Shown here: in pieces, positions 19,338 to 59,342 of the stretch
Numbering within the stretch: position 1 is the stretch's first letter
Layout: each line of letters starts with the position of its first letter
Assembly (NCBI GenBank): GCA_009691785.1
Contig: SIAM01000009.1
Coordinates: 1-59,342, forward strand
Direction: 5' to 3'
Length of the DNA: 59,342 nt
Source: Phycisphaerales bacterium
GTDB taxonomy: Bacteria; Planctomycetota; Phycisphaerae; Phycisphaerales; SM1A02
Notes under the pieces: model-generated
The model's database searches: none
Told to the model about the DNA's origin: nothing
Seen by the model: only the letters and a program-made list of their open reading frames with translations
Program-made: the position numbers and the translations under genes

Positions 19338-20558
19338 ATGGCGCGCAGTTTGGTGGAGCGCATGAGTCATCCCACACACGCCGTCGCACAAGACACGCCA
19401 AGCGTGGCGCGCGCTGTGGCGCAAGCAAATCTAAATTTATTTTCTACTTTGGGCGATGAGCAGTCCGTCGATGTGCTTGTGGTGGGCGGCGGACCCGCTG
19501 GAAGTTCGTGCGCCATTGCGTTGGCGCGCGCAGGCGCACGCGTGATGTTGGTGGACGCGCAAGCGCGAGGCCGCGACAAATGTTGCGGACATTGTTTGTC
19601 GGGCGGCGCGTGGAAAATTTTGAGCGAGTTGGGATTGCGGGAGGTGGTTGAGTCGGTGTCCACGGGCGCAACTGGCCAAGTGGCTTGGCGCAGTGGTGCG
19701 CAAGGATTTGAAATGAATTTGCCTGCTTTGGGCGCGATCACGCCACGAGTGGAGCTGGACAAAAAATTGTTGGAGGAATCCGAACGCGTTGGCGCGCGCG
19801 TTGTGCAATCCGCCACGGCGAAATGGGTGTCGCCAGGAAAAGTCGCCGTGCGAATGGCGGGCGAAGAATGTGTCGTCAACGCAAAGTTGGTCATTGCGGC
19901 GGACGGTCTTGGTAGCGGCATTGCGCGCGCGCGTGGTTGGAACCCCGCAAGTCCAGGGCGCAAGTATGGCTTCGCTGGTTCGTGGCGCGCGCCGATGGCG
20001 CTTAGGAATTGGCCGGCAGAGCGTATTGAAATGCGCGTGGTGCGTGGCGGATATTTGGGCGTGGTCGCCGAGTCGCATGAACAAATTCATGTGGCGGGTT
20101 TGATCGATCGCAATTCAAATGTCAGTCGCCCAGATGATTTGCTGAATGAAGTGGCGCGTGATTGGCCGTTGCTTGCGGCGGCGTTGCAAGAAGGCAGGCC
20201 AAGCCGATGGCATGCGGCGGGACCGTTGCCGTGGGTGCCCACTTGCATCGCCGATGAATCAACGGCGTTGGTGGGGGACGCGGCGGGATATGCCGAGCCA
20301 TTTTCCGGCGAGGGAATGCGCTGGGCCTTTGAGAGCGCGCAAGGATTGTGCGCGACATGGAAACAGCATGGCGCCTGGAGCGCGGCGGCGGCGCGCACAT
20401 ATTTGAATTGGCACCGCGATCACATTGCGCGTAGGCAGCAAAAAACACTGCGAACGGCGTGGTTTTTGGGGCAACCCGCGCGCGCCTCAATCATGTGCCA
20501 AGCGGCGCGAACATTTCCTAGAGCCGCGTCGTGGCTCGCTTGTAGCATGACCCAATGA
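19338..20558 (+). CDS. FAD-dependent oxidoreductase of the geranylgeranyl reductase/aromatic hydroxylase type
   Basis: The N-terminal Rossmann motif VLVVGGGPAGSSCA with a following acidic strand end (VMLVDAQ) binds FAD. GHCLSGGAW, VIAADGLGSGIAR (DG motif) and LVGDAAGYAEPFSGEGM (GD motif) place it in the flavoprotein hydroxylase/geranylgeranyl reductase superfamily (about 400 aa). Its stop overlaps the start of a type III polyketide synthase (ATGA), so it is almost certainly a tailoring enzyme for that product, like the SrsC flavoprotein hydroxylase beside SrsA in Streptomyces. The start is either ATG 19338 or ATG 19362; neither has a perfect ribosome site. Confidence 0.82.
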   Translation: MARSLVERMSHPTHAVAQDTPSVARAVAQANLNLFSTLGDEQSVDVLVVGGGPAGSSCAIALARAGARVMLVDAQARGRDKCCGHCLSGGAWKILSELGLREVVESVSTGATGQVAWRSGAQGFEMNLPALGAITPRVELDKKLLEESERVGARVVQSATAKWVSPGKVAVRMAGEECVVNAKLVIAADGLGSGIARARGWNPASPGRKYGFAGSWRAPMALRNWPAERIEMRVVRGGYLGVVAESHEQIHVAGLIDRNSNVSRPDDLLNEVARDWPLLAAALQEGRPSRWHAAGPLPWVPTCIADESTALVGDAAGYAEPFSGEGMRWAFESAQGLCATWKQHGAWSAAAARTYLNWHRDHIARRQQKTLRTAWFLGQPARASIMCQAARTFPRAASWLACSMTQ

Positions 20559-21751
20559 GTGTGCGCATTGAATCAATGGGCTTTGCAACGCCGGCTCTGC
20601 AGCGCACGCAACACGATATTGGGCGCGAGCAAGCGCAATTGTGGAATTTAAAAGCGTCCTCACAAGAGCGGTGGGAGCGCATGGTTGAACATTGCGGCAT
20701 AGAGCGCCGCGCCGCGGTCATGCCACTGCAAGAAATTATTTCGCTGACAACGGCGCAGCGCATGAAATGTTTTTCGCAACACGCGCCGGCGCTGGCCGCG
20801 CGCGCCATTGCGCAAGCGTTGACGCGTGGAAATCGCACGGCGCAAGAAATTACCGACTTTATTGTTGTCACGTGCACCGGGTTTGAATCGCCAGGGCCGC
20901 TGCACGACATTTGCGTGCAGGCGGGACTTTCGCCCAGGGTGCGAACTTCGCAAATTGGATTCATGGGTTGCTTTGGTGGAATTTGCGGACTTGACGCCGC
21001 CGCCGGCGCCGCTCTGCGACATGAGGGCGCGGTGGTGTTGCTGGTGTGCGTGGAATTGTGCTCGCTGCATTTACGCAATGACCGCGACGCGCAAAATATG
21101 GTGGCCAGTTTATTGTTCGCCGATGGAGCCGCCGCGTTGATCGTTTCAAACACGCCGATTCACCGCGGAATGCCGCTTGAAAATTCATTTGGATTCAACG
21201 CCAATCTTGCGCTCAATGGCAATCATGCGTGTGATCGAGCAATGGAACTGGACGACAGTCTTGCGCTGCGCCATGGTCTTTCAATCACTGTTGGTCCACG
21301 GCAGGCGCGGCGCATTCCAAATACTTCGCATGCCATGAGTTGGCAAATCACCGACGCGGGTTTCGCAATGACGCTTGATCGAAGTGTTCCCGCGCATATT
21401 GAGTTGGCGGCGCCGGCCGCGCTTGGCCACTTGCGCCAGTGCGTCATTCATCCAGGCGGCGCAGCGATATTGGATGCAATGGAGCGCGGCGCCAACGCGC
21501 GACATTGCGGCGGCCTTGCGCCGGAAAGTTTGATTGCCGCGCGTGGTGTTCTTCGCGATCACGGCAACATGAGCAGCGGCAGTGTGTTCTTTGTGCTTGA
21601 TCGCTTGCTGCAAAGCGGAGCAACCGGCGACATGTGCTTGGTCGCGTTTGGTCCGGGTTTGACTGTGGATCGAATTGATCTTGCGGCTTTACCCGCCACG
21701 CAAACAGCGAAACAAGCCCATCGCGTTCCTTCAGAGATAGCGTTTGGCTAG
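20555..21751 (+). CDS. Type III polyketide synthase
   Basis: Chalcone/stilbene-synthase-family homodimer that condenses malonyl-CoA onto an acyl-CoA starter. The catalytic triad is visible: Cys139 in GFMGCFGG, His299 in VIHPGG and Asn338 in HGNMSSGSV. The N-terminal half also shows the thiolase-like VVTCTGFESPG, and its 398 aa is standard. The ATG overlaps the stop of the flavoprotein gene, and the stop overlaps the next start by 8 bp. A product of alkylresorcinol or alkylpyrone type is plausible from the flavoprotein partner. No methyltransferase is present. Substrate is unknown. Confidence 0.9.
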   Translation: MSVRIESMGFATPALQRTQHDIGREQAQLWNLKASSQERWERMVEHCGIERRAAVMPLQEIISLTTAQRMKCFSQHAPALAARAIAQALTRGNRTAQEITDFIVVTCTGFESPGPLHDICVQAGLSPRVRTSQIGFMGCFGGICGLDAAAGAALRHEGAVVLLVCVELCSLHLRNDRDAQNMVASLLFADGAAALIVSNTPIHRGMPLENSFGFNANLALNGNHACDRAMELDDSLALRHGLSITVGPRQARRIPNTSHAMSWQITDAGFAMTLDRSVPAHIELAAPAALGHLRQCVIHPGGAAILDAMERGANARHCGGLAPESLIAARGVLRDHGNMSSGSVFFVLDRLLQSGATGDMCLVAFGPGLTVDRIDLAALPATQTAKQAHRVPSEIAFG

Positions 21752-50487: not shown

Positions 50488-52164
50488 CTATTTCACTTGC
50501 GCAAAGAGCGCAACGGAAACATCGCCGTCAATGAATTCGCTTATAGGTTTAGGCGCGCCAAGCGCATGAAATAGTTTGTAATTATTGTGCGTCATAATCA
50601 AAACCACCGAGCCATGGGCTTGCTTCTGCGCCACATGCGCAAGCAAGTCGGGTTGGGAAATAAACCGCGCTTTTTCCTCTGGTATTTCCAATTCATTATT
50701 CAACTCACCACCGGGAGCAATGAAGTACATGTCAAATCTTTTGGTGGTGTAAGCCACAGACGTCGCCATGGAGCTGTCTGCAATAATTGTGCCCGCCTGC
50801 GCGATCATGTTTGCATGATTGGCCAGCGATTCAACGGCTGTGCGACTGCGTTCAATCAGCGCGGTTGGAAATAGAAGGCTGATCATCATGAGCATGGGCG
50901 TCGGCGAAAATGCCATGCGCCACAGGCGATATATTGGCGTTTGCGCTCGATGAGCCCAAGAATCAAGTCCAGCCCACGTAAACAACGCCAGTGACAACAG
51001 CGCGACACGCCACTGAGAGTTGCTGTGCCATAGCGGATCCGCGTAAACCCAACTTTGTCCTGTCACAATAAGTGACGCCATCATGAGCGCGATAAGAATA
51101 AGCAGTTGACGACCCAGTTGATCATGCCACGATGTGACTAAAGTAGATGAGCTAAAATAGCTCAGCAGAGTCACGGTAATAATGATTGAAATGGCTGGGA
51201 AAATAGGCAAAATATATGCCGGCAACTTTCCACTGCTTGCCGACAACAACAGCAGTGGCAGCGCAATCCAGATCGCGCAGAGTGACACTCCGCGATCACA
51301 AAACATCGTTTGGCGAAAGCCATTCCATATCTTGCCAATATTGATGCTCCACAGCAGCGCGCCAACTGGAATCATGGGTAGGAAATACCACCACGACTCT
51401 GGATGTTGATTGCTGTCCGGCGAAGTAAAGCGACGGATGTGCTCGACCCAAAAGAAATAATTCCAGAAACCAGAATTATGCTTGTCAATTTGAATAATTA
51501 GCGGCGCCGCGATCATGGCCGCCGACGCAATCGGAACAAGCGGCAACACGAACAAGTCGCGCCAGCGTTTTTGCCAGATCAGCCAACCGCCCGCGATGAT
51601 TGCGGGAAAGGCCAGGCCAAGAAATCCCTTGGTTAAGAACGCGCCCGCGGCCGCGACGCCGCTTATGGCGAGAAAGAACATGCGCCATCGCTTTACGCGG
51701 TCCGTGGCGGCATACACAAAAAACGCAACGCACACTGTGATAAACGCAGTGAAAATGCCATCTAAAATAGCAACGCTGCCAAACACCCACGGAAACAACA
51801 TGGAAAGTTGCACCACTGATGTCACGCCACCAACATTTGGAATTTTGCAAATGCGCGCCGCGATTTGTCCTGTGGCAATTGCCGTCACAAGCGCCGCAAG
51901 CGCCGCGGGCAATCTCAACGCCCAAGCGTTCTCACCAAATATCGCCATGGATATCGCTGTGCACCAATATCCAAGTGGCGGTTTTTCGTAGTAGCTCAAG
52001 CCCACAAGTTTCATCGACCACCAATCTTTAGTGTGCAACATTTCAAGAGCTATCGCGCCGTAGCGTGATTCATCTGGTGAAATAATCGGCCGCATGGAAA
52101 GGGGCAACAAATAGATCAACAGAAAGAGGAGGGCGGTATACCCCGCGATCGATCGTGCGCTCAT
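50488..52164 (-). CDS. arnT: Lipid A 4-amino-4-deoxy-L-arabinose transferase ArnT
   Basis: GT83 membrane enzyme that moves L-Ara4N from undecaprenyl phosphate to lipid A on the periplasmic face. The first luminal loop has the family SPDESRYGAIALEML (DE-RY) and LSYYEKPPLGYW, both very close to enterobacterial ArnT. About twelve membrane segments follow, then a soluble C-terminal part, 558 aa against about 550. Its ATG overlaps the arnD stop (ATGA). It is the last gene of arnBCADT, convergent with a GNAT gene. The lipid A acceptor is inferred from the operon. Confidence 0.9.
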   Translation of the reverse strand: MSARSIAGYTALLFLLIYLLPLSMRPIISPDESRYGAIALEMLHTKDWWSMKLVGLSYYEKPPLGYWCTAISMAIFGENAWALRLPAALAALVTAIATGQIAARICKIPNVGGVTSVVQLSMLFPWVFGSVAILDGIFTAFITVCVAFFVYAATDRVKRWRMFFLAISGVAAAGAFLTKGFLGLAFPAIIAGGWLIWQKRWRDLFVLPLVPIASAAMIAAPLIIQIDKHNSGFWNYFFWVEHIRRFTSPDSNQHPESWWYFLPMIPVGALLWSINIGKIWNGFRQTMFCDRGVSLCAIWIALPLLLLSASSGKLPAYILPIFPAISIIITVTLLSYFSSSTLVTSWHDQLGRQLLILIALMMASLIVTGQSWVYADPLWHSNSQWRVALLSLALFTWAGLDSWAHRAQTPIYRLWRMAFSPTPMLMMISLLFPTALIERSRTAVESLANHANMIAQAGTIIADSSMATSVAYTTKRFDMYFIAPGGELNNELEIPEEKARFISQPDLLAHVAQKQAHGSVVLIMTHNNYKLFHALGAPKPISEFIDGDVSVALFAQVK

Positions 52165-53138
52165 GCGCCCGTAAGCGTATCCATTCGTAGGCAAAGCCAT
52201 CCTTCGCGACCTGAAATTTGCCCAGGACCAATGGAGCCGATTTCAATTTCGGACATTGGGCGATTGGCCGCAAATGTTGAATTTGAGATGTTCGGCGCGT
52301 TGGTAAACGCTGGATTTGTGGGGTTTCCAAGCATGCAACTCAGCGGCGCAAATGTGTGGCCCGCGGCCAATGCTTGGTCTAGAAACGCTTCAAAACACTT
52401 GGCTTTTACGCCGCCTTCGCTTTCCGCGTGCACGGTCAGCACATGCGGCTTGTCATCCGAAATCAGTTGCAGCAAGTGGGCGTTCCAAACCTCATCGCGG
52501 TTTTCCTTGGGCAGCGCCGCCTCGTCATATGTAGGCAAGTCCACCGGAATTTGCGGCTGATCCAGCACGCTCTTACCCACGCGTGGCCGAAACGCGCGAG
52601 CAGGACCACGACAGTCGCTGCGAAATTGAAATTGCCGCGAGCGGGCAAAGTTCAACACGCGCTCACTGCAGCGCCAACCCGGACACGCCGCGCTTTGCGG
52701 CTTCTGCCCCATGACTTCCTCAAAGGCGTCGCATGCCAAAATCAATTGCGCTTCAAGCGCCTCATCAGAAAGTTTTTCAATACCAACTTGCCACAGATGA
52801 TGGTCCCACGCATGCACTCCAACTTCGTGGCCCGCCTTCATGGGCATGCGCAACTGTTCCTTGAAGTGGCGGCTGATCACGGTGCCTGGCCACAGCGTGC
52901 CGCGAAATAAAATGTCGTAGCCGTACAGCGACGCGGCTTGCGAGCGCAACATCTTCAGGAAGAAAGCGGGCCGCAGAAGTCGCCACGCATGTCGACCCAT
53001 GTTGTCGGGACCAAGTGTCACGTACCACGTGGCGCAAATTCCGCGGGCCTCTAAAATGCGCAATAAACGCGGCAAACCATCACGAGTTCCGCGCACCGTA
53101 TCCACATCCACACGCAGTGCAATGGGGGCAATGGCCAC
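52161..53138 (-). CDS. arnD: 4-deoxy-4-formamido-L-arabinose-phosphoundecaprenol deformylase ArnD
   Basis: Polysaccharide-deacetylase-fold enzyme that removes the formyl group from undecaprenyl-phosphate-L-Ara4FN, freeing the amine. RVDVDTVRGTRDGLPRLL, GPDNMGRHAWRLLRPAF, AASLYGYDILFRGTLWPG and HEVGVHAWDHHLWQ match ArnD motif by motif. ACPGWRCSE and SDCRGPARAFRP also match. It is 325 aa, slightly longer than E. coli (296). It starts at GTG 53138, 12 nt after arnA, and overlaps arnT. Confidence 0.93.
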   Translation of the reverse strand: MAIAPIALRVDVDTVRGTRDGLPRLLRILEARGICATWYVTLGPDNMGRHAWRLLRPAFFLKMLRSQAASLYGYDILFRGTLWPGTVISRHFKEQLRMPMKAGHEVGVHAWDHHLWQVGIEKLSDEALEAQLILACDAFEEVMGQKPQSAACPGWRCSERVLNFARSRQFQFRSDCRGPARAFRPRVGKSVLDQPQIPVDLPTYDEAALPKENRDEVWNAHLLQLISDDKPHVLTVHAESEGGVKAKCFEAFLDQALAAGHTFAPLSCMLGNPTNPAFTNAPNISNSTFAANRPMSEIEIGSIGPGQISGREGWLCLRMDTLTGA

Positions 53139-53150
53139 GGCGTGCTTGCT

Positions 53151-55196
53151 TTAGTGCGAAGAACTTCGGGACGCTGGAACTTTGTTACCCGCCGCGGCGC
53201 CAGTTGCTGGCGTGTTTGGCGCCGTCAAGTTGTGCGTCTTGGCGTGTTGGCGAATGAACCAATCCAAAGTTCGCTCCACGCTTTGACGCGTGGAAATCTT
53301 TGGTGTCCAACCCAACGCATTCTTGGCGTTGCGAATACTTGGCGTGCGATGTTGCACGTCCTCGTAGCCCTTGCCGTAGTAGCGGGCGCTTTCAATTTCC
53401 TCAAAGCCGGCGAACGGCGGAAAGCATGCGCGCAGTGGATGGCGATCAAAGGCCTCAACCAACATTTCAGCAAGCTCACGAATGCTGGCCTCATTGTCGG
53501 GATTGCCAATATTGAAAATGCCGCCAGTGGCTTTGCCATCCGTGTTCTCAATGATGCGGTACAGGCAATCCACGCCTTCATCCACATCGGTGAAGCAGCG
53601 CTTCTGTTCGCCGCCATCAACCAACAGAATTGGCGTGCCTTCAACCAGATTCAAAATCAATTGCGTGATGGCGCGCGAGGAACCAATGCGAGCAGAATCC
53701 AGCGTGTCCAAGCGTGGCCCAAGCCAGTTGAAGGGACGGAACAAACTAAATTGCAGGCCGCGCGTGGAACCGTAGGCCCAAATCACGCGGTCCAAAAGTT
53801 GCTTGGAAGCGCTGTAAATCCAGCGTTGTCGATGAATTGGTCCGGTGACCAAATTGGAAGTTTCCTCGTCAAAGTGCTCATCCTTGCACATGCCGTACAC
53901 CTCGCTGGTGCTGGGGAAAATAATGCGCTTGTTGTAGCGCACGCAGTCACGAACCACGCGCAGGTTCTCCTCAAAGTCCAACTCAAACACGCGTAGCGGA
54001 TTGCGCACGTACTCAATTGGCGTGGCAATGGCCACCAGCGGCAGAATCACATCGCACTTGCGCACGTGGTATTCAACCCACTCGCGGTTGATTGAAACGT
54101 CGCCTTCAATAAAGTGAAAGCGCGGATGATCCGCGACGTTGCCAATGTTGTCCGAGCGCAAATCCATTCCGTAGACTTCAAAGTTTTCATTCTTCAGCAA
54201 GCGTTCCGTGAGATGGCTTCCAATGAAACCGTTCACGCCCAGAATTAAAATGGAAGTTGTTTTCTTTTGCGATGACAGAACGCGCTTACCCAAGCGCATC
54301 TTGGCGACCAAGTTCATGTCCTTGGCAATCTGCGCGCCGGAACTCCACACGCCATCGGCGGGTTGTCCCTGCACAATTTCAAGCGCGCCATTTGCGCACG
54401 CCACAATCATTGGATCGGCGCTGAGAATTTCACCAGGCTGGCCGGTGCCTTGCGCAGTTTTTGTGGTCCACACCATGAACTTACGCTCGCCCGCAAAGGT
54501 GAACGCGCCTGGCCACGGAAAGGCAACGGCGCGGGTTAAATTGCGTATTTCCTCGGCGGATTTGCTCCAATCAATGTTGCCGTCCTCAGGCGTGCGGCGA
54601 CCAAATGAGCTGGCGTTCTTCTCATCTTGCGGAGTTCGCGGCGCCTTGTTGGCTTTGACTTGCGGCAGCAACTCATCAAGCAAATCGCTGGTGGCTTGGC
54701 TCATGCGCGCGGTCAGTGTGCGCGCGGTGTCGGCAATGTCAATCTTCACCTTGCGCTGTCCAATGATGTCGCCCGCATCGGCTTTGTCGCTCATGTAATG
54801 CAGCGTCACGCCAGTTTCAGTTTCGCCATTCACAAGCACCCAATTAATCGGGCAGCGGCCGCGGTACTTGGGCAACATGGCCGAGTGCAAATTAATGCAA
54901 CCCTTTGGAAATAACTCGCGCACTTTCGCGCCAACCATGTTTCGATAGTGGCATGACAAAAGTAAATCGGCTTTCATCTCTTTGATGCGCTCGATCCAAA
55001 TTGGGTGGTCCAGTTTTTCTGGAGCGAACACGGGAATGCCAGCGGATGCGGCTTCGCGCGCCACGGATGTGTACCAGCCGCCTTCGGATGGATCATCTCG
55101 GTGCGTGAACACCGCGACCACATCAAGGCCATTTCGAATTGCTGCTTTAAGTCCCGCGGCGCCAAGTTCGTGATAAGCCAATACGACGGTCTTCAT
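53151..55196 (-). CDS. arnA: Bifunctional UDP-L-Ara4N formyltransferase/UDP-glucuronate decarboxylase ArnA
   Basis: The C-terminal half oxidatively decarboxylates UDP-glucuronate to the 4-keto pentose, and the N-terminal half formylates UDP-L-Ara4N. Formyltransferase triad: Asn102 and His104 in [13 protein letters not shown], and Asp140 in the DAGDI segment, the same numbering as E. coli. Decarboxylase: [12 protein letters not shown] at about 318, PSTSEVYG (Thr430, Glu432), YSASK (Tyr461, Lys465) and HRTPSIRNA with Arg617, each two less than in E. coli. It is 681 aa with an extra 25-residue Ala/Ser/Pro tail. AAGGA lies 6 nt before the ATG. Confidence 0.95.
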
Positions 55197-55295
55197 GTGG
55201 TTTCCTTAAAAAAGTATGTGAAACAAAGTGCGATTTGATGGGCAATTCCGTTTGCCAATCTAGAAAGTAAACAATTTCAATCAAGCAAAAATCAA

Positions 55296-56294
55296 TTAGG
55301 CCATGCTTCGCGCGGGTGTTAAATTGCCAGCCGAGCCCTGTGATGGTACTTCAGACAGCGTCTCGCCCACAACATTGTCAAGAATGTAGCGGGGGCGTTC
55401 GCGCACGTCCGCATGGATGCGGCCCACATACTCGCCCATTAATCCAAGGGCCACAAATTGCGCGCCAACAAAGAAAAACAGAATGGAAAACAGCGTGAAT
55501 ACTCCGTTGCCCGCCCATTCAGAACCAAACACTACGCGCAGCAGGAACAGCATCAATGCAAAACCAATCGCCAGCACGGAAATGCCTCCGCCCACCCATG
55601 TCAATAAGCGCAGCGGTCCCGCGGTCATGCAGGTGAGCAAATCAAATTGCAAATTCACAAGTTTAATAACGGAGTAATTGCTGTCACCCGCGGTGCGCGC
55701 GGCGTGCGTTACTGAAATTTCCGTGACGCGCTTGGCGAACAAATTAGCCAGCACCGGAATGAATGTGCTGCGCTCTCGGCATTGCAACATGGCGTCCACC
55801 ACGCGTCGCTTGTAGGCGCGCAACATGCAGCCGTAATCGTGCATTTGCACGCCGGTGGAGCGGCGCACAATTGAATTGATGATGCCGGAGAAAAGTTTAC
55901 GCGCGAACACATCTTGGCGATCGGCGCGCACGCTGCCCACAACGTCGTATCCGTCATCAATGACGGCGAGCAACTTTGGAATTTCTTCTGGCGGATTCTG
56001 CAAGTCCGCGTCCAGCGTGACCATGACATCGCCTTGCGCGTTGGCAAAGCCGCATAAAATTGCGTTGTGTTGTCCGTAGTTGCGATTCAGAATCAGCGAC
56101 TTGATTTCGCCGGGATATGTTTTGGCGGCCTCGACCAACATTTCGCTGGAGCCATCGCGGCTGCCGTCGTCAATTAAAATAAGTTCCCACGGTCGATCAA
56201 GCGCGCGCCCAACTTTCACGCAGCGCTCAATCAGTTGCGGCAAATTCAAACGCTCGTTGTGAACTGGAATGACAATGGAAACACTTGACTTCAT
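55296..56294 (-). CDS. arnC: Undecaprenyl-phosphate 4-deoxy-4-formamido-L-arabinose transferase ArnC
   Basis: GT2 enzyme that loads L-Ara4FN onto undecaprenyl phosphate. SIVIPVHNERLNL, LILIDDGSRDGS and TLDADLQNPPEEIPKLL are the GT2 core. STGVQMHDYGCMLRAYKR and the two C-terminal membrane spans ending LGLMGEYVGRIHADVRERPRY are ArnC-like. It is 332 aa. Its ATG overlaps the arnB stop (ATGA). A 99-bp gap with no gene separates it from arnA. DPM1-type GT2 enzymes are related, but the operon decides. Confidence 0.93.
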   Translation of the reverse strand: MKSSVSIVIPVHNERLNLPQLIERCVKVGRALDRPWELILIDDGSRDGSSEMLVEAAKTYPGEIKSLILNRNYGQHNAILCGFANAQGDVMVTLDADLQNPPEEIPKLLAVIDDGYDVVGSVRADRQDVFARKLFSGIINSIVRRSTGVQMHDYGCMLRAYKRRVVDAMLQCRERSTFIPVLANLFAKRVTEISVTHAARTAGDSNYSVIKLVNLQFDLLTCMTAGPLRLLTWVGGGISVLAIGFALMLFLLRVVFGSEWAGNGVFTLFSILFFFVGAQFVALGLMGEYVGRIHADVRERPRYILDNVVGETLSEVPSQGSAGNLTPARSMA

Positions 56295-57478
56295 CTCGCC
56301 ACTCCCGTTACGGCCACTTTGGCCACGCTCTTTGGCAGCACTTCCTTGATGGCGCTGACCACATCAAGCACATCCTCATTGGTCATGTCTGGAAACATTG
56401 GAAGCGTGCATATTCTGGCTGAATTCCACTCGGTATTGGCAAGGCGACCCACAGGTTCAGGGCGATTTTCGCGGTACCAACGGTGCGTATGCGACGCCAA
56501 GAAATGAATGCCGGTGCCAATATTTTTCGCCTTCAGCGCTTCCATGAACGCGCTGCGCTCCATACCGCAGCGGCGCTCATCAACGCGCACCACCAACAAG
56601 TGCCGCGCATGTTTGTGCGACCATGTTGGGTCCGCAAGCATGTTCACGCCATCAATGTTGGCAAGCTGCTCGCGGTAAATCATGGCCAACTCTTGGCGAC
56701 GCGCAATGAATGCGTCAAGCCGTGGAAACTGGCTCAGCGCCAACACCGCGTTCATGTCGGGCATATTTTGTTTGTAGCCCGGTTGCTGCACTTCGGCTTG
56801 TGGCGAGCGACCTTGTTGCGCGCGATCATGCGCGTCAACCGCAAGTCCGTGAAAGCGCAGACCGCGAATCTTGGCGGCAAGCGCGCTGTCGTCGGTCACA
56901 AGCACGCCGCCTTCACCACTGGTAATTGTTTTAATTGGATGCAGCGAGAAAATGGCGGTGCCGCCATTTCCAATTTCGCGGCCCTTGTAATGCGTGCCAA
57001 TAGCGTGCGCGGCATCCTCTAACAGATGCACTCCTTTGCGCGCGCACATGGCGCGAATGGGATCAAGATCAACCGGAGCGCCGGCGTAATGAACTGGAAT
57101 CACAACTTTGGTGCGCGCCGTGATGGCGGCTTCAAGCGCCTCGGGTGACGCAAGCAGCGTGTCGCGATCGGCATCAACAAAAACATTGCGCCCACCAAGC
57201 AGCTCAACCATGTTGGGCGTTGAAACCCACGTCATGGACGGACCAACAACTTCGTCGCCAGGCTTCAGGCCAATCGCCTGCAAGTACAAATGCATAAGCG
57301 CGGTGGCGCTGGTTGCGGCCACGGCTTCCTTGGCGCCGCAGCGAGTTGCAATTGCGCGCTCTAGTCCCGCAACTTTGGGGCCGGTGGTGATCCAGCCGCT
57401 GCGCAACACCGCAACGACCGCTTGAATATCCGCCTCGGAAATGGGTGCCTTGCAAAACGGAAGGAAGGTTTCTCGCAT
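56291..57478 (-). CDS. arnB: UDP-4-amino-4-deoxy-L-arabinose aminotransferase ArnB
   Basis: DegT/DnrJ/EryC1 PLP aminotransferase that uses glutamate to aminate UDP-4-keto-pentose. The PLP lysine is Lys183 in IFSLHPIKTITSGEGG. The start FLPFCKAPISEADI and GWITTGPKV, plus HLLEDAAHAIG, are close to enterobacterial ArnB. It is 395 aa from ATG 57478; a short upstream extension of the frame lacks similarity. It is the first gene of arnBCADT, overlaps arnC by 4 bp, and the large inverted repeat lies 72 bp upstream. Confidence 0.94.
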   Translation of the reverse strand: MRETFLPFCKAPISEADIQAVVAVLRSGWITTGPKVAGLERAIATRCGAKEAVAATSATALMHLYLQAIGLKPGDEVVGPSMTWVSTPNMVELLGGRNVFVDADRDTLLASPEALEAAITARTKVVIPVHYAGAPVDLDPIRAMCARKGVHLLEDAAHAIGTHYKGREIGNGGTAIFSLHPIKTITSGEGGVLVTDDSALAAKIRGLRFHGLAVDAHDRAQQGRSPQAEVQQPGYKQNMPDMNAVLALSQFPRLDAFIARRQELAMIYREQLANIDGVNMLADPTWSHKHARHLLVVRVDERRCGMERSAFMEALKAKNIGTGIHFLASHTHRWYRENRPEPVGRLANTEWNSARICTLPMFPDMTNEDVLDVVSAIKEVLPKSVAKVAVTGVAR

Positions 57479-57549
57479 GAGCCAAGGATGATAGGGCAAA
57501 TCTTGGCTTTTCCCAATGGTTTGCGCAGAAATTTTTCGATGCGCAACTA

Positions 57550-57789
57550 CAAAGCCCTAGAGATTAGACAACTCGCGATGCTGCGTGATCACGGGTGCTA
57601 TCAGTCCAGCTTCGTAATTAGATGCGCCCCAAGCGCTCAGACAACGCACCCCTCGCTCGTTTGCTGACTCACGAGCGAGGTTGCTAAACTCGCGCCATTT
57701 GGGGCGCATCTAATTACTTCGCCCAGCACTCGCTTGTGGTAGCACCCATGATCACTACGCGCGAACCTACTCGCGCCTTAGGGGCTTGG
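57550..57789. repeat. 240-bp nested inverted repeat between the RCC1 gene and arnB
   Basis: Four nested levels are visible. Outermost, CAAAGCCCTAG (57550-57560) faces CTTAGGGGCTTG (about 57778-57788), imperfect. Next, a 19-bp arm at 57585-57603 faces 57737-57755 with 17 of 19 matches. Next, a perfect 19-bp arm at 57614-57632 faces 57699-57717. Innermost, CCTCGCTCGT (57651-57660) faces ACGAGCGAGG (57671-57680), perfect with a 10-nt loop. There is no ORF with a ribosome site and no clear flanking duplication. It could be a structured RNA, a foldback mobile element or a transcription barrier. Confidence 0.85.
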
Positions 57790-57911
57790 TATTTATTTCG
57801 CGGCACAATTTCTTTGCAGATGTGTTAAAAAGCAGGTTCACCTGATGCAAGTGTTCCTGTGGTATCTGATGCGCCTCGTTTTACTTTAATTGTTGCCATT
57901 TATCGTTACCT
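57790..57911. other. Spacer between the inverted repeat and the RCC1 gene
   Basis: AT-richer stretch after the RCC1 stop (reading leftward). I see no gene, no T-run hairpin and no promoter I would defend. With 57500-57549 it completes the 412-bp non-coding interval whose main content is the inverted repeat. Confidence 0.5.
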
Positions 57912-59342
57912 CTACCAAGTCACTTCGCCAAAGTACAGCAGCATTAGGGCCGCGTCGCCGCTGTCAATCATGCCGCTGCCGTCAAAGTCGCCAAAGGTTG
58001 GATTCTCTTCGCCGTAATACAACAGCAGAATGCTGAAGTCGCCGGAGTCAACAATGCCGCTTAGGTCCAGGTCGCCCTTGGCCCACTCGCAATCATCAAG
58101 GTGGCCGTCCAAGTCGTCGTCGCTTGCGCCCTCCGCAAAGTCGCAGGTGTCAATGCGCCCGTTGAAATTGCAATCCCACTCTGGGTGGTCAAGCAAATCA
58201 AAGTCGTCAATGATGATGTTGCGATTGCAATCAATGGATGGCGTGCGCGCAATTTCCAGGGCGTCAATGATGCCGTTAGCGTTGCGGTCTAATGCAGGAT
58301 CATCCGACATGTCGCAGGTGTCTGGGCGATTGTTGTTGTTGAAGTCACTAGCCGCTCTAAATGCAACGGTGTTGTATGCGCCCGCAGCAATCATACTGCA
58401 GGCACCCATGTTGTCAGGAACAATGGATTGCCCCCAATTAGTATTGGAATATGTGTTGATGGTTCCAGCGCCCCAAGCGCGCACATTACCGTTGGCAAGC
58501 AATGCAACGGAGTGATATTGACCAGCCGCAACTTGCACGCATGGACCAAGGTCTGAGGGAACGGTGCATTGACCGTAGTCGTTGTTGCCCCAAACCAGAA
58601 CTGCGCCACCTTTCAGAGCGATGGTGTGGGAGGCACCACCTGCGATAGCAGTAACGCCGCTATTGGCAGAGTCAGGAATGGTGCATTGACCGTTGCCGTT
58701 GGAACCCCAAGCCAGAACAGCGCCACCTTTAAGAGCAATGGTGTGTATGTAACCGTCCGCGATAGCAGAAACGCCGCTCAGGGCATCAGTAGGAATGGTG
58801 CATTGACCGTAGAAGTTGTAACCCCAAGCCAGAACTGCGCCATCTTTAAGAGCGATGGTGTGATAGCCACCACCCGCGATAGCAGAAACGCCGCTATTGG
58901 CAGAGGCAGGAATGGTGCATTGACCCTCGTAGTTGCGACCCCAAGCCAGAACGGCGCCATCTTTAAGAGCGATGGTGTGGTAGACACCGCCCGCGATAGC
59001 AGAAACGCCGCTAGAAGCAGAAGCAGGAATGGTGCATTGACCGTAGTCGTTGTAACTCCAAGCCAGAACGGCGCCATCTTTGAGAGCGATGGTGTGGTAG
59101 GCACCGCCCGCGATAGCAGAAACGCCGCTATTGGCAGAGGCAGGAATGGTGCATTGACCGTAGCCGTTGTAACCCCAAGCCAGAACCTTATCCGTCTGCC
59201 GCCCCGCAACATCGCAAGTATCAAGCACACCGTTGGCATTGCAATCAAGCGCGGGTTGGTCGAACAATTCATAGGTGTCAATGTGGCCGTTGCCATCGCA
59301 ATCAATGGACGGAGTGTTGAAGCAATCAAGCGCATCAAGCAC
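57912..59342 (-). CDS. Secreted RCC1-repeat protein with EF-hand-like repeats and dockerin-type tail (5' end outside window)
   Basis: 476 residues are inside the window; the start is beyond its edge. DCNGNGHIDTYE-type calcium-loop repeats come first. Then come seven RCC1-like blades of about 39 residues (VLAWGYNGYGQCTIP, GVSAIAGG, YHTIALKDGA), enough for a complete seven-bladed propeller. More DCN/NGxIDxCD repeats follow (about 340-430). The last 55 residues, with DLDLSGIVDSGDFSILL and DFDGSGMIDSGDAALMLLYFG, form two dockerin-like EF loops as in planctomycete extracellular proteins. It is likely exported and calcium-binding; its role is unknown. Confidence 0.85.
   Translation of the reverse strand: MLDALDCFNTPSIDCDGNGHIDTYELFDQPALDCNANGVLDTCDVAGRQTDKVLAWGYNGYGQCTIPASANSGVSAIAGGAYHTIALKDGAVLAWSYNDYGQCTIPASASSGVSAIAGGVYHTIALKDGAVLAWGRNYEGQCTIPASANSGVSAIAGGGYHTIALKDGAVLAWGYNFYGQCTIPTDALSGVSAIADGYIHTIALKGGAVLAWGSNGNGQCTIPDSANSGVTAIAGGASHTIALKGGAVLVWGNNDYGQCTVPSDLGPCVQVAAGQYHSVALLANGNVRAWGAGTINTYSNTNWGQSIVPDNMGACSMIAAGAYNTVAFRAASDFNNNNRPDTCDMSDDPALDRNANGIIDALEIARTPSIDCNRNIIIDDFDLLDHPEWDCNFNGRIDTCDFAEGASDDDLDGHLDDCEWAKGDLDLSGIVDSGDFSILLLYYGEENPTFGDFDGSGMIDSGDAALMLLYFGEVTW
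58602..59186 (-). repeat. Five near-identical 117-bp tandem repeats in the RCC1 region
   Basis: The 39-codon units at 59186, 59069, 58952, 58835 and 58718 (descending starts) differ by few bases, while the last two blades (58601 to about 58370) are diverged. Uneven similarity points to recent copy expansion inside the propeller. Confidence 0.85.

What the first reader, a model, noticed from the sequence alone, without database searches (positions are those of the whole stretch)
50488..57478. Complete arnBCADT aminoarabinose operon in a planctomycete-like genome
Five leftward genes in the exact enterobacterial order (arnB, C, A, D, T), with 4-bp overlaps at B/C and D/T. ArnA is the two-domain fusion with catalytic residues at E. 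coli-like positions (N102, H104, D140; then E432, Y461, K465, R617). Motifs in ArnD and ArnT are unusually close to proteobacterial ones. In Enterobacteria this pathway adds L-Ara4N to lipid A and gives polymyxin resistance. Its presence here suggests amine-decorated lipid A, or a different acceptor, in a planctomycete. Ugd and the ArnE/ArnF flippase are not in the window, so the flipping step is open. Composition matches the neighbours, so any transfer would not be very recent.
Basis: partly seen in the sequence, partly recalled or inferred. Interest (0 to 1): 0.75.

Follow-up and report, generated by a model that had tools for sequence, protein, structure and literature searches.

The report
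Aminoarabinose operon native to Phycisphaerae
A planctomycete carries the five core genes that make and attach a positively charged sugar (aminoarabinose), known from gut bacteria as a modification of the outer-membrane lipid; the genes look like long-standing residents of this bacterial group, but their usual membrane flipping partner was not found.

Summary

This is not a recent enterobacterial import. ArnA is in 14 of 15 same-genus genomes. Window ArnA and ArnT sit inside well-supported Phycisphaerae clades, apart from the Pseudomonadota rows. LpxC, LpxK and a contig-cut UDP-glucose dehydrogenase are elsewhere in the genome, so lipid A as acceptor is plausible but untested.

New: no ArnF-type flippase was detected in 13 of 13 genomes of the genus searched. 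In a second Phycisphaerae group, 15 of 15 operons with upstream DNA carry a PF03706 gene before arnB; its model has the MprF flippase fold, and 14 of 14 such genomes searched show no ArnF hit. The window's clade lacks this gene, so its flipping step stays open. Also new: arnT exists as three diverged allele classes joined to a near-uniform arnBCA.

The parts
56291..57478 (-). arnB: UDP-L-Ara4N aminotransferase (PLP; Lys190 of the 402-aa reading aligns with E. coli Lys188)
   Evidence: NF008658 555.9 bits, below cut-off 631; PF01041 379.5 bits; residue alignment
55296..56294 (-). arnC: Und-P-Ara4FN transferase, GT2 family
   Evidence: NF007986 456.8 bits, below cut-off 529; PF00535; 123 invariant positions with E. 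coli and 11 other sequences
53151..55196 (-). arnA: fused UDP-L-Ara4N formyltransferase / UDP-glucuronate oxidative decarboxylase
   Evidence: NF005998 1044.5 bits, passes cut-off 777; PDB 8gjh full-length match E 4e-277; catalytic residues
52161..53138 (-). arnD: Und-P-Ara4FN deformylase, polysaccharide-deacetylase (NodB) type; divergence step near 52420-52660
   Evidence: NF011923 314.8 bits, below cut-off 382; PF01522; D11, H109, H113 kept; step
50488..52164 (-). arnT: Ara4N transferase, GT-C fold; ATG 52164 gives the 4-bp overlap with arnD (52200 in the mechanical list)
57479..57911 (.). stretch between the RCC1-repeat gene and the arnB ATG; holds any operon promoter (position only; not analysed)
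   Evidence: ORF coordinates

Best explanation
An L-Ara4N (4-amino-4-deoxy-L-arabinose) pathway resident in Phycisphaerae. ArnA oxidises and decarboxylates UDP-glucuronate, ArnB aminates the product, ArnA formylates it, ArnC loads it on undecaprenyl phosphate, ArnD removes the formyl group, a flippase not yet identified turns the lipid over, and ArnT transfers the sugar, most likely to the phosphates of lipid A, making the outer surface more cationic. Shown by sequence and structure models: enzyme families, catalytic positions, conservation in the genus, place in Phycisphaerae clades, presence of lpxC and lpxK. Inferred: substrate flow (from the known pathway), lipid A as acceptor, any protection from cationic peptides. 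In a second Phycisphaerae group the flippase is probably an MprF-fold protein encoded just before arnB; in the window's own clade that gene and ArnF are both undetected.
Against: Four of five proteins score below NCBIfam equivalog cut-offs. waaA was not found in this genome, 92% complete. No ArnF-type hit in 13 of 13 genomes of the genus at E <= 0.01, and the MprF-type gene is undetected in the 17 nearest genomes. UGDH is seen only as a contig-cut fragment. Fused ArnA passes the cut-off in only 15 of 392 phylum genomes, one of them (G389) by reading through two stops, so it is not a general planctomycete trait. No chemistry was done.
Confidence: 0.8

Rival explanations
1. Same sugar pathway, different acceptor: ArnT decorates another phosphorylated surface glycan or lipid rather than lipid A.
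For: ArnT is the least conserved member, 25% identity to E. coli, and the most variable within the genus. In 4 of 17 second-group loci (L034, L035, L038, L040) no arnT follows arnD; for L034 the genome has one arnT, on another contig, 412.3 bits, beside an ORF that looks like a glycosyltransferase by eye.
Against: Full-length fold match to ArnT of Cupriavidus; lipid A genes present.
Confidence: 0.15
2. Recent horizontal import of a proteobacterial arn operon.
For: Same gene order as in E. coli; ArnA 57% identical.
Against: Trees keep Pseudomonadota apart at 100/100; ArnA in 14 of 15 same-genus genomes; GC close to neighbours except arnT; no ArnF-type gene found with it. An ancient transfer between phyla, and transfers within the phylum, are not excluded: the presence is patchy.
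Confidence: 0.04
3. Binning contamination or chimeric assembly.
For: The named relatives are metagenome assemblies, and the window is one whole 59,342-base contig of a 77-contig genome.
Against: Same operon and collinear downstream genes in four same-genus contigs and the operon inside an 821,817-base contig of G014.
Confidence: 0.01

Closest known systems
E. coli arnBCADTEF (pmrHFIJKLM) operon
   Same: Order B-C-A-D-T on one strand, fused ArnA, catalytic positions
   Different: No arnE/arnF after arnT and no ArnF hit in the genus; other junctions: 4-bp overlaps at B/C and D/T and a 99-bp C/A gap here, against a 3-bp B/C gap and 1-bp C/A and D/T overlaps in E. coli; apart in trees
Cupriavidus metallidurans ArnT (PDB 5ezm, 5f15)
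   Different: 20% identity in the structural alignment
MprF lysyl-phosphatidylglycerol flippase/synthetase (PDB 6lvf, 7duw, 9j8s)
   Different: 390 aa, membrane part only, with a beta-strand region at residues 45-93; no synthetase part; Foldseek alone is modest, E 9.1e-4, TM 0.50; not in the window's clade

Membership tests
arn (L-Ara4N lipid A modification) operon | arnB, arnC, arnA, arnD, arnT together in one direction | tested here: met
arn (L-Ara4N lipid A modification) operon | bifunctional ArnA with both active sites | tested here: met
   NF005998 over cut-off; residues
arn (L-Ara4N lipid A modification) operon | ArnB, ArnC, ArnD, ArnT reach NCBIfam equivalog cut-offs | tested here: not met
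   matching model is the best family but below its cut-off for all four; that the cut-offs are tuned to Pseudomonadota is my inference
arn (L-Ara4N lipid A modification) operon | ArnT has the ArnT fold and catalytic acidic residues | tested here: met
arn (L-Ara4N lipid A modification) operon | ArnE/ArnF flippase | tested here: not met
   not after arnT; ArnF model 0 of 13 genus genomes at E <= 0.01; ArnE model not searched genome-wide; short divergent proteins can be missed
arn (L-Ara4N lipid A modification) operon | UDP-glucose dehydrogenase in the genome | tested here: met
   G000:C70 1-899, cut by the contig end; best NCBIfam TuaD 346.1 bits over positions 3-269 of 439, below its whole-protein cut-off of 700
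arn (L-Ara4N lipid A modification) operon | lipid A pathway with 4'-kinase | tested here: met
   lpxC G000:C37 275.5 bits; lpxK G000:C72 120.3 bits, cut-off 91.95; waaA not found in own genome; other lpx genes not searched
arn (L-Ara4N lipid A modification) operon | product: Ara4N on lipid A, polymyxin tolerance | not testable with these tools
   needs chemistry
MprF-type flippase (PF03706) as arn partner | PF03706 gene next to arnB | tested here: not met
   window clade: 0 of 13 distinct loci with 1.8 kb or more upstream, 0 of 17 genomes by model A1; met in 15 of 15 second-group loci with upstream DNA

The most novel reading that the evidence does not exclude
Phycisphaerae run the Ara4N pathway with an MprF-type flippase in place of ArnEF (ancestral in the group, replaced or moved in the window's clade), and arnT, with the 3' part of arnD, is exchanged between close relatives as a cassette, so that the surface-modifying step varies from strain to strain.
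Probability: 0.35. Interest if true: 0.72.

Novelty: new variant of a known kind. Interest (0 to 1): 0.52.

Why it matters
Lipid A decoration with Ara4N is, to my knowledge, studied mainly in Pseudomonadota, as a clinical resistance trait. A stable version in environmental Phycisphaerae would make it an old envelope trait there, would predict phosphorylated lipid A in these planctomycetes, and offers a candidate second solution to flipping Und-P-Ara4N (an MprF fold). It also supplies distant ArnA and ArnT homologues for comparison of active sites.

Tried and rejected
Contamination and recent enterobacterial transfer: rejected. A flippase beside the window operon: the neighbours are a GNAT-like gene, an HD-domain gene, mnmG and an RCC1-repeat protein. 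The genome's only PF03706 hit is 25.9 bits, under the 33.4 cut-off, in a 607-aa protein whose Pfam scan at E <= 1e-6 shows only a GT2 domain; it is a weak lead. Of genes after arnT in other loci, two scanned are fasciclin/CIA30 proteins (L041, L043), one a peroxiredoxin (L037) and two had no Pfam match (L029, L031): none a flippase. For the group-2 membrane protein the structural list showed no other strong fold. An ArnA search of plasmids (120 records, 40 listed, nearly all Enterobacterales) was meant for outgroups and not used.

Literature: 'planctomycet' with 'aminoarabinose' gave 0 papers; with 'lipid A' and 'arnA' 19, off-topic by title; with '4-amino-4-deoxy-L-arabinose' 3, not on this by title and abstract start; one search gave 0; the rows listed (capped at 10 in 24, 39, 40) held nothing on it by title. 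PMC9927302 (environmental pmrE/pmrF) has no 'planctomyc' or 'Phycisphaer' in its main text (passages). The claim 'not in print' rests on these searches of one open-access library.

Not done: a species tree (so vertical descent against within-phylum transfer is open), an ArnE-model genome search, promoter analysis, a coverage check, a Verrucomicrobiota survey. One search prints L049 with arnC before arnB; I did not check it and take it for a low-score mis-assignment.

Full report

Whose genome. Nearest named contigs carry the titles 'uncultured bacterium' or 'Planctomycetia bacterium', and the wider set mostly 'Phycisphaerales' or 'Phycisphaerae bacterium'. This is by record title; no species tree was built.

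Distribution. ArnA at 71% identity or more is in 14 of 15 same-genus genomes (two cut by contig ends; G004, 73% complete, has none); all five genes in order were seen in 9 of them, the other loci held being short or incomplete. Of 21 genomes of other genera of the family one has it (G016, 68%), and of 24 in the rest of the order one has a full-length match (G058, 59%). Over 392 genomes of the phylum, fused ArnA passes the cut-off in 15, including two further genera of the same family and one genome (G389) only by reading through two stops. In the Pseudomonadota sample it passes in 17 of 299. So it is near-universal in the genus and patchy outside it.

Age and origin. In a 62-row ArnA tree, 16 Pseudomonadota rows are one side of a 100/100 branch and 33 Phycisphaerae rows form one clade (100/99) with the window deep inside. 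L052 and L114, which I had also labelled as Phycisphaerae or order members, fall outside that clade at an open fork with other Planctomycetota; Kiritimatiella/Verrucomicrobia rows and one Desulfonema row lie on the same side as the Planctomycetota. The 44-row ArnT tree shows the same pattern, 28 Phycisphaerae rows at 96/99 and 8 Pseudomonadota at 100/100, with some long branches flagged by the program. The root is a midpoint, so the direction of any ancient transfer is unknown. Twenty-four distinct Phycisphaerae loci print B-C-A-D-T in that order (my count, window included; one contig under two ids counted once; best hits over 90 bits, 60 for arnT).

Is there a lipid A to decorate? LpxC passes its cut-off in 61 of 61 genomes, own included. 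LpxK passes in 54 of 61, own included at 120.3 bits. The Kdo-transferase domain model passes in 18 of 21, but not in the window's own genome, which is 92% complete; 10 of 12 other same-genus genomes have it. A UDP-glucose dehydrogenase-like ORF is cut by the end of contig C70, and a second nucleotide-sugar dehydrogenase on C51 resembles other subfamilies more. A study of Kdo2-lipid A enzymes lists Planctomycetes among the phyla in its figure (PMC3087551, passages only).

Mosaic arnT. Between the window and four close same-genus contigs (L021-L024), arnA, arnB and arnC show dS 0.24-0.33, but arnT 1.03-1.08 and arnD 0.46-0.53. L021 and L023 share one arnT class, L022 and L024 another (dS 0.21 within, 0.79-0.95 between), the window a third. 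In 40-codon bins along the operon, third-position differences are 5-30% in arnB, arnC, arnA and the first part of arnD and 20-72% after a step inside arnD, near 52420 against L022 and 52660 against L023 (two of the four relatives were run). Protein identity is 98-99% in ArnA and 70-71% in ArnT. arnT dN/dS is 0.20-0.21 here, so it is constrained, not free. The HD-domain gene further down is also diverged from L021 and L023 (dS 0.73, 0.64; the other two not held), the GNAT-like gene between them less so (0.33-0.55), and mnmG beyond shows 0.34-0.38 against two. Homologous exchange of arnT between strains is the simplest reading; strain-chimeric assembly cannot be excluded for any single genome, but two pairs of assemblies share classes.

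Most likely mechanism. Synthesis of Und-P-Ara4N on the cytoplasmic face and transfer on the periplasmic face by ArnT, with lipid A phosphates the likeliest acceptor. The first part rests on enzyme identity, the second on ArnT fold and the presence of lpx genes, and any role against cationic peptides is inference. In Pseudomonas aeruginosa, loss of an undecaprenyl-phosphate flippase abolishes Ara4N on lipid A in a strain with constitutive arn expression (PMC12893004, passages only), which shows how strongly this route leans on lipid-carrier flipping.

Verdict. Real, resident and ordinary in its core chemistry; unusual in its host group, in the undetected ArnEF, in the MprF-fold neighbour of the sister group, and in the allele classes of arnT.

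Noticed in passing
window 50488-52660: arnT and the 3' part of arnD are strongly diverged from close relatives at silent sites while arnBCA are not: three arnT allele classes among five genomes.
   Followed up: partly
L034-L037, L039-L047, L049, L050, just before arnB: PF03706-type protein with MprF fold next to arn operons.
   Followed up: partly
L149-L152, L155: Several other Planctomycetota have the two ArnA domains as separate adjacent genes (G389, G415, G110, G260, G184), and L155 has an ArnE/F-like small membrane protein at 63.4 bits, below the cut-off of 99.
   Followed up: no
G000:C37:29809-30627 and relatives: LpxC lies in open frames of 430-520 aa in 51 of 61 genomes, longer than LpxC alone; a fusion partner is likely but was not identified.
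   Followed up: no
window 20555-21751: Type III polyketide synthase-like protein (chalcone/stilbene synthase domains) next to an FAD-binding protein at 19338-20558.
   Followed up: no
L215:3553-5376 (own contig C15): GT2 protein of 607 aa with a tail weakly like PF03706; frames of 601-614 aa with such a hit appear in 7 genomes of the genus.
   Followed up: no
window 57912-59342: RCC1-repeat protein upstream of the operon; its ending looks dockerin-like to the eye, which no tool tested.
   Followed up: no
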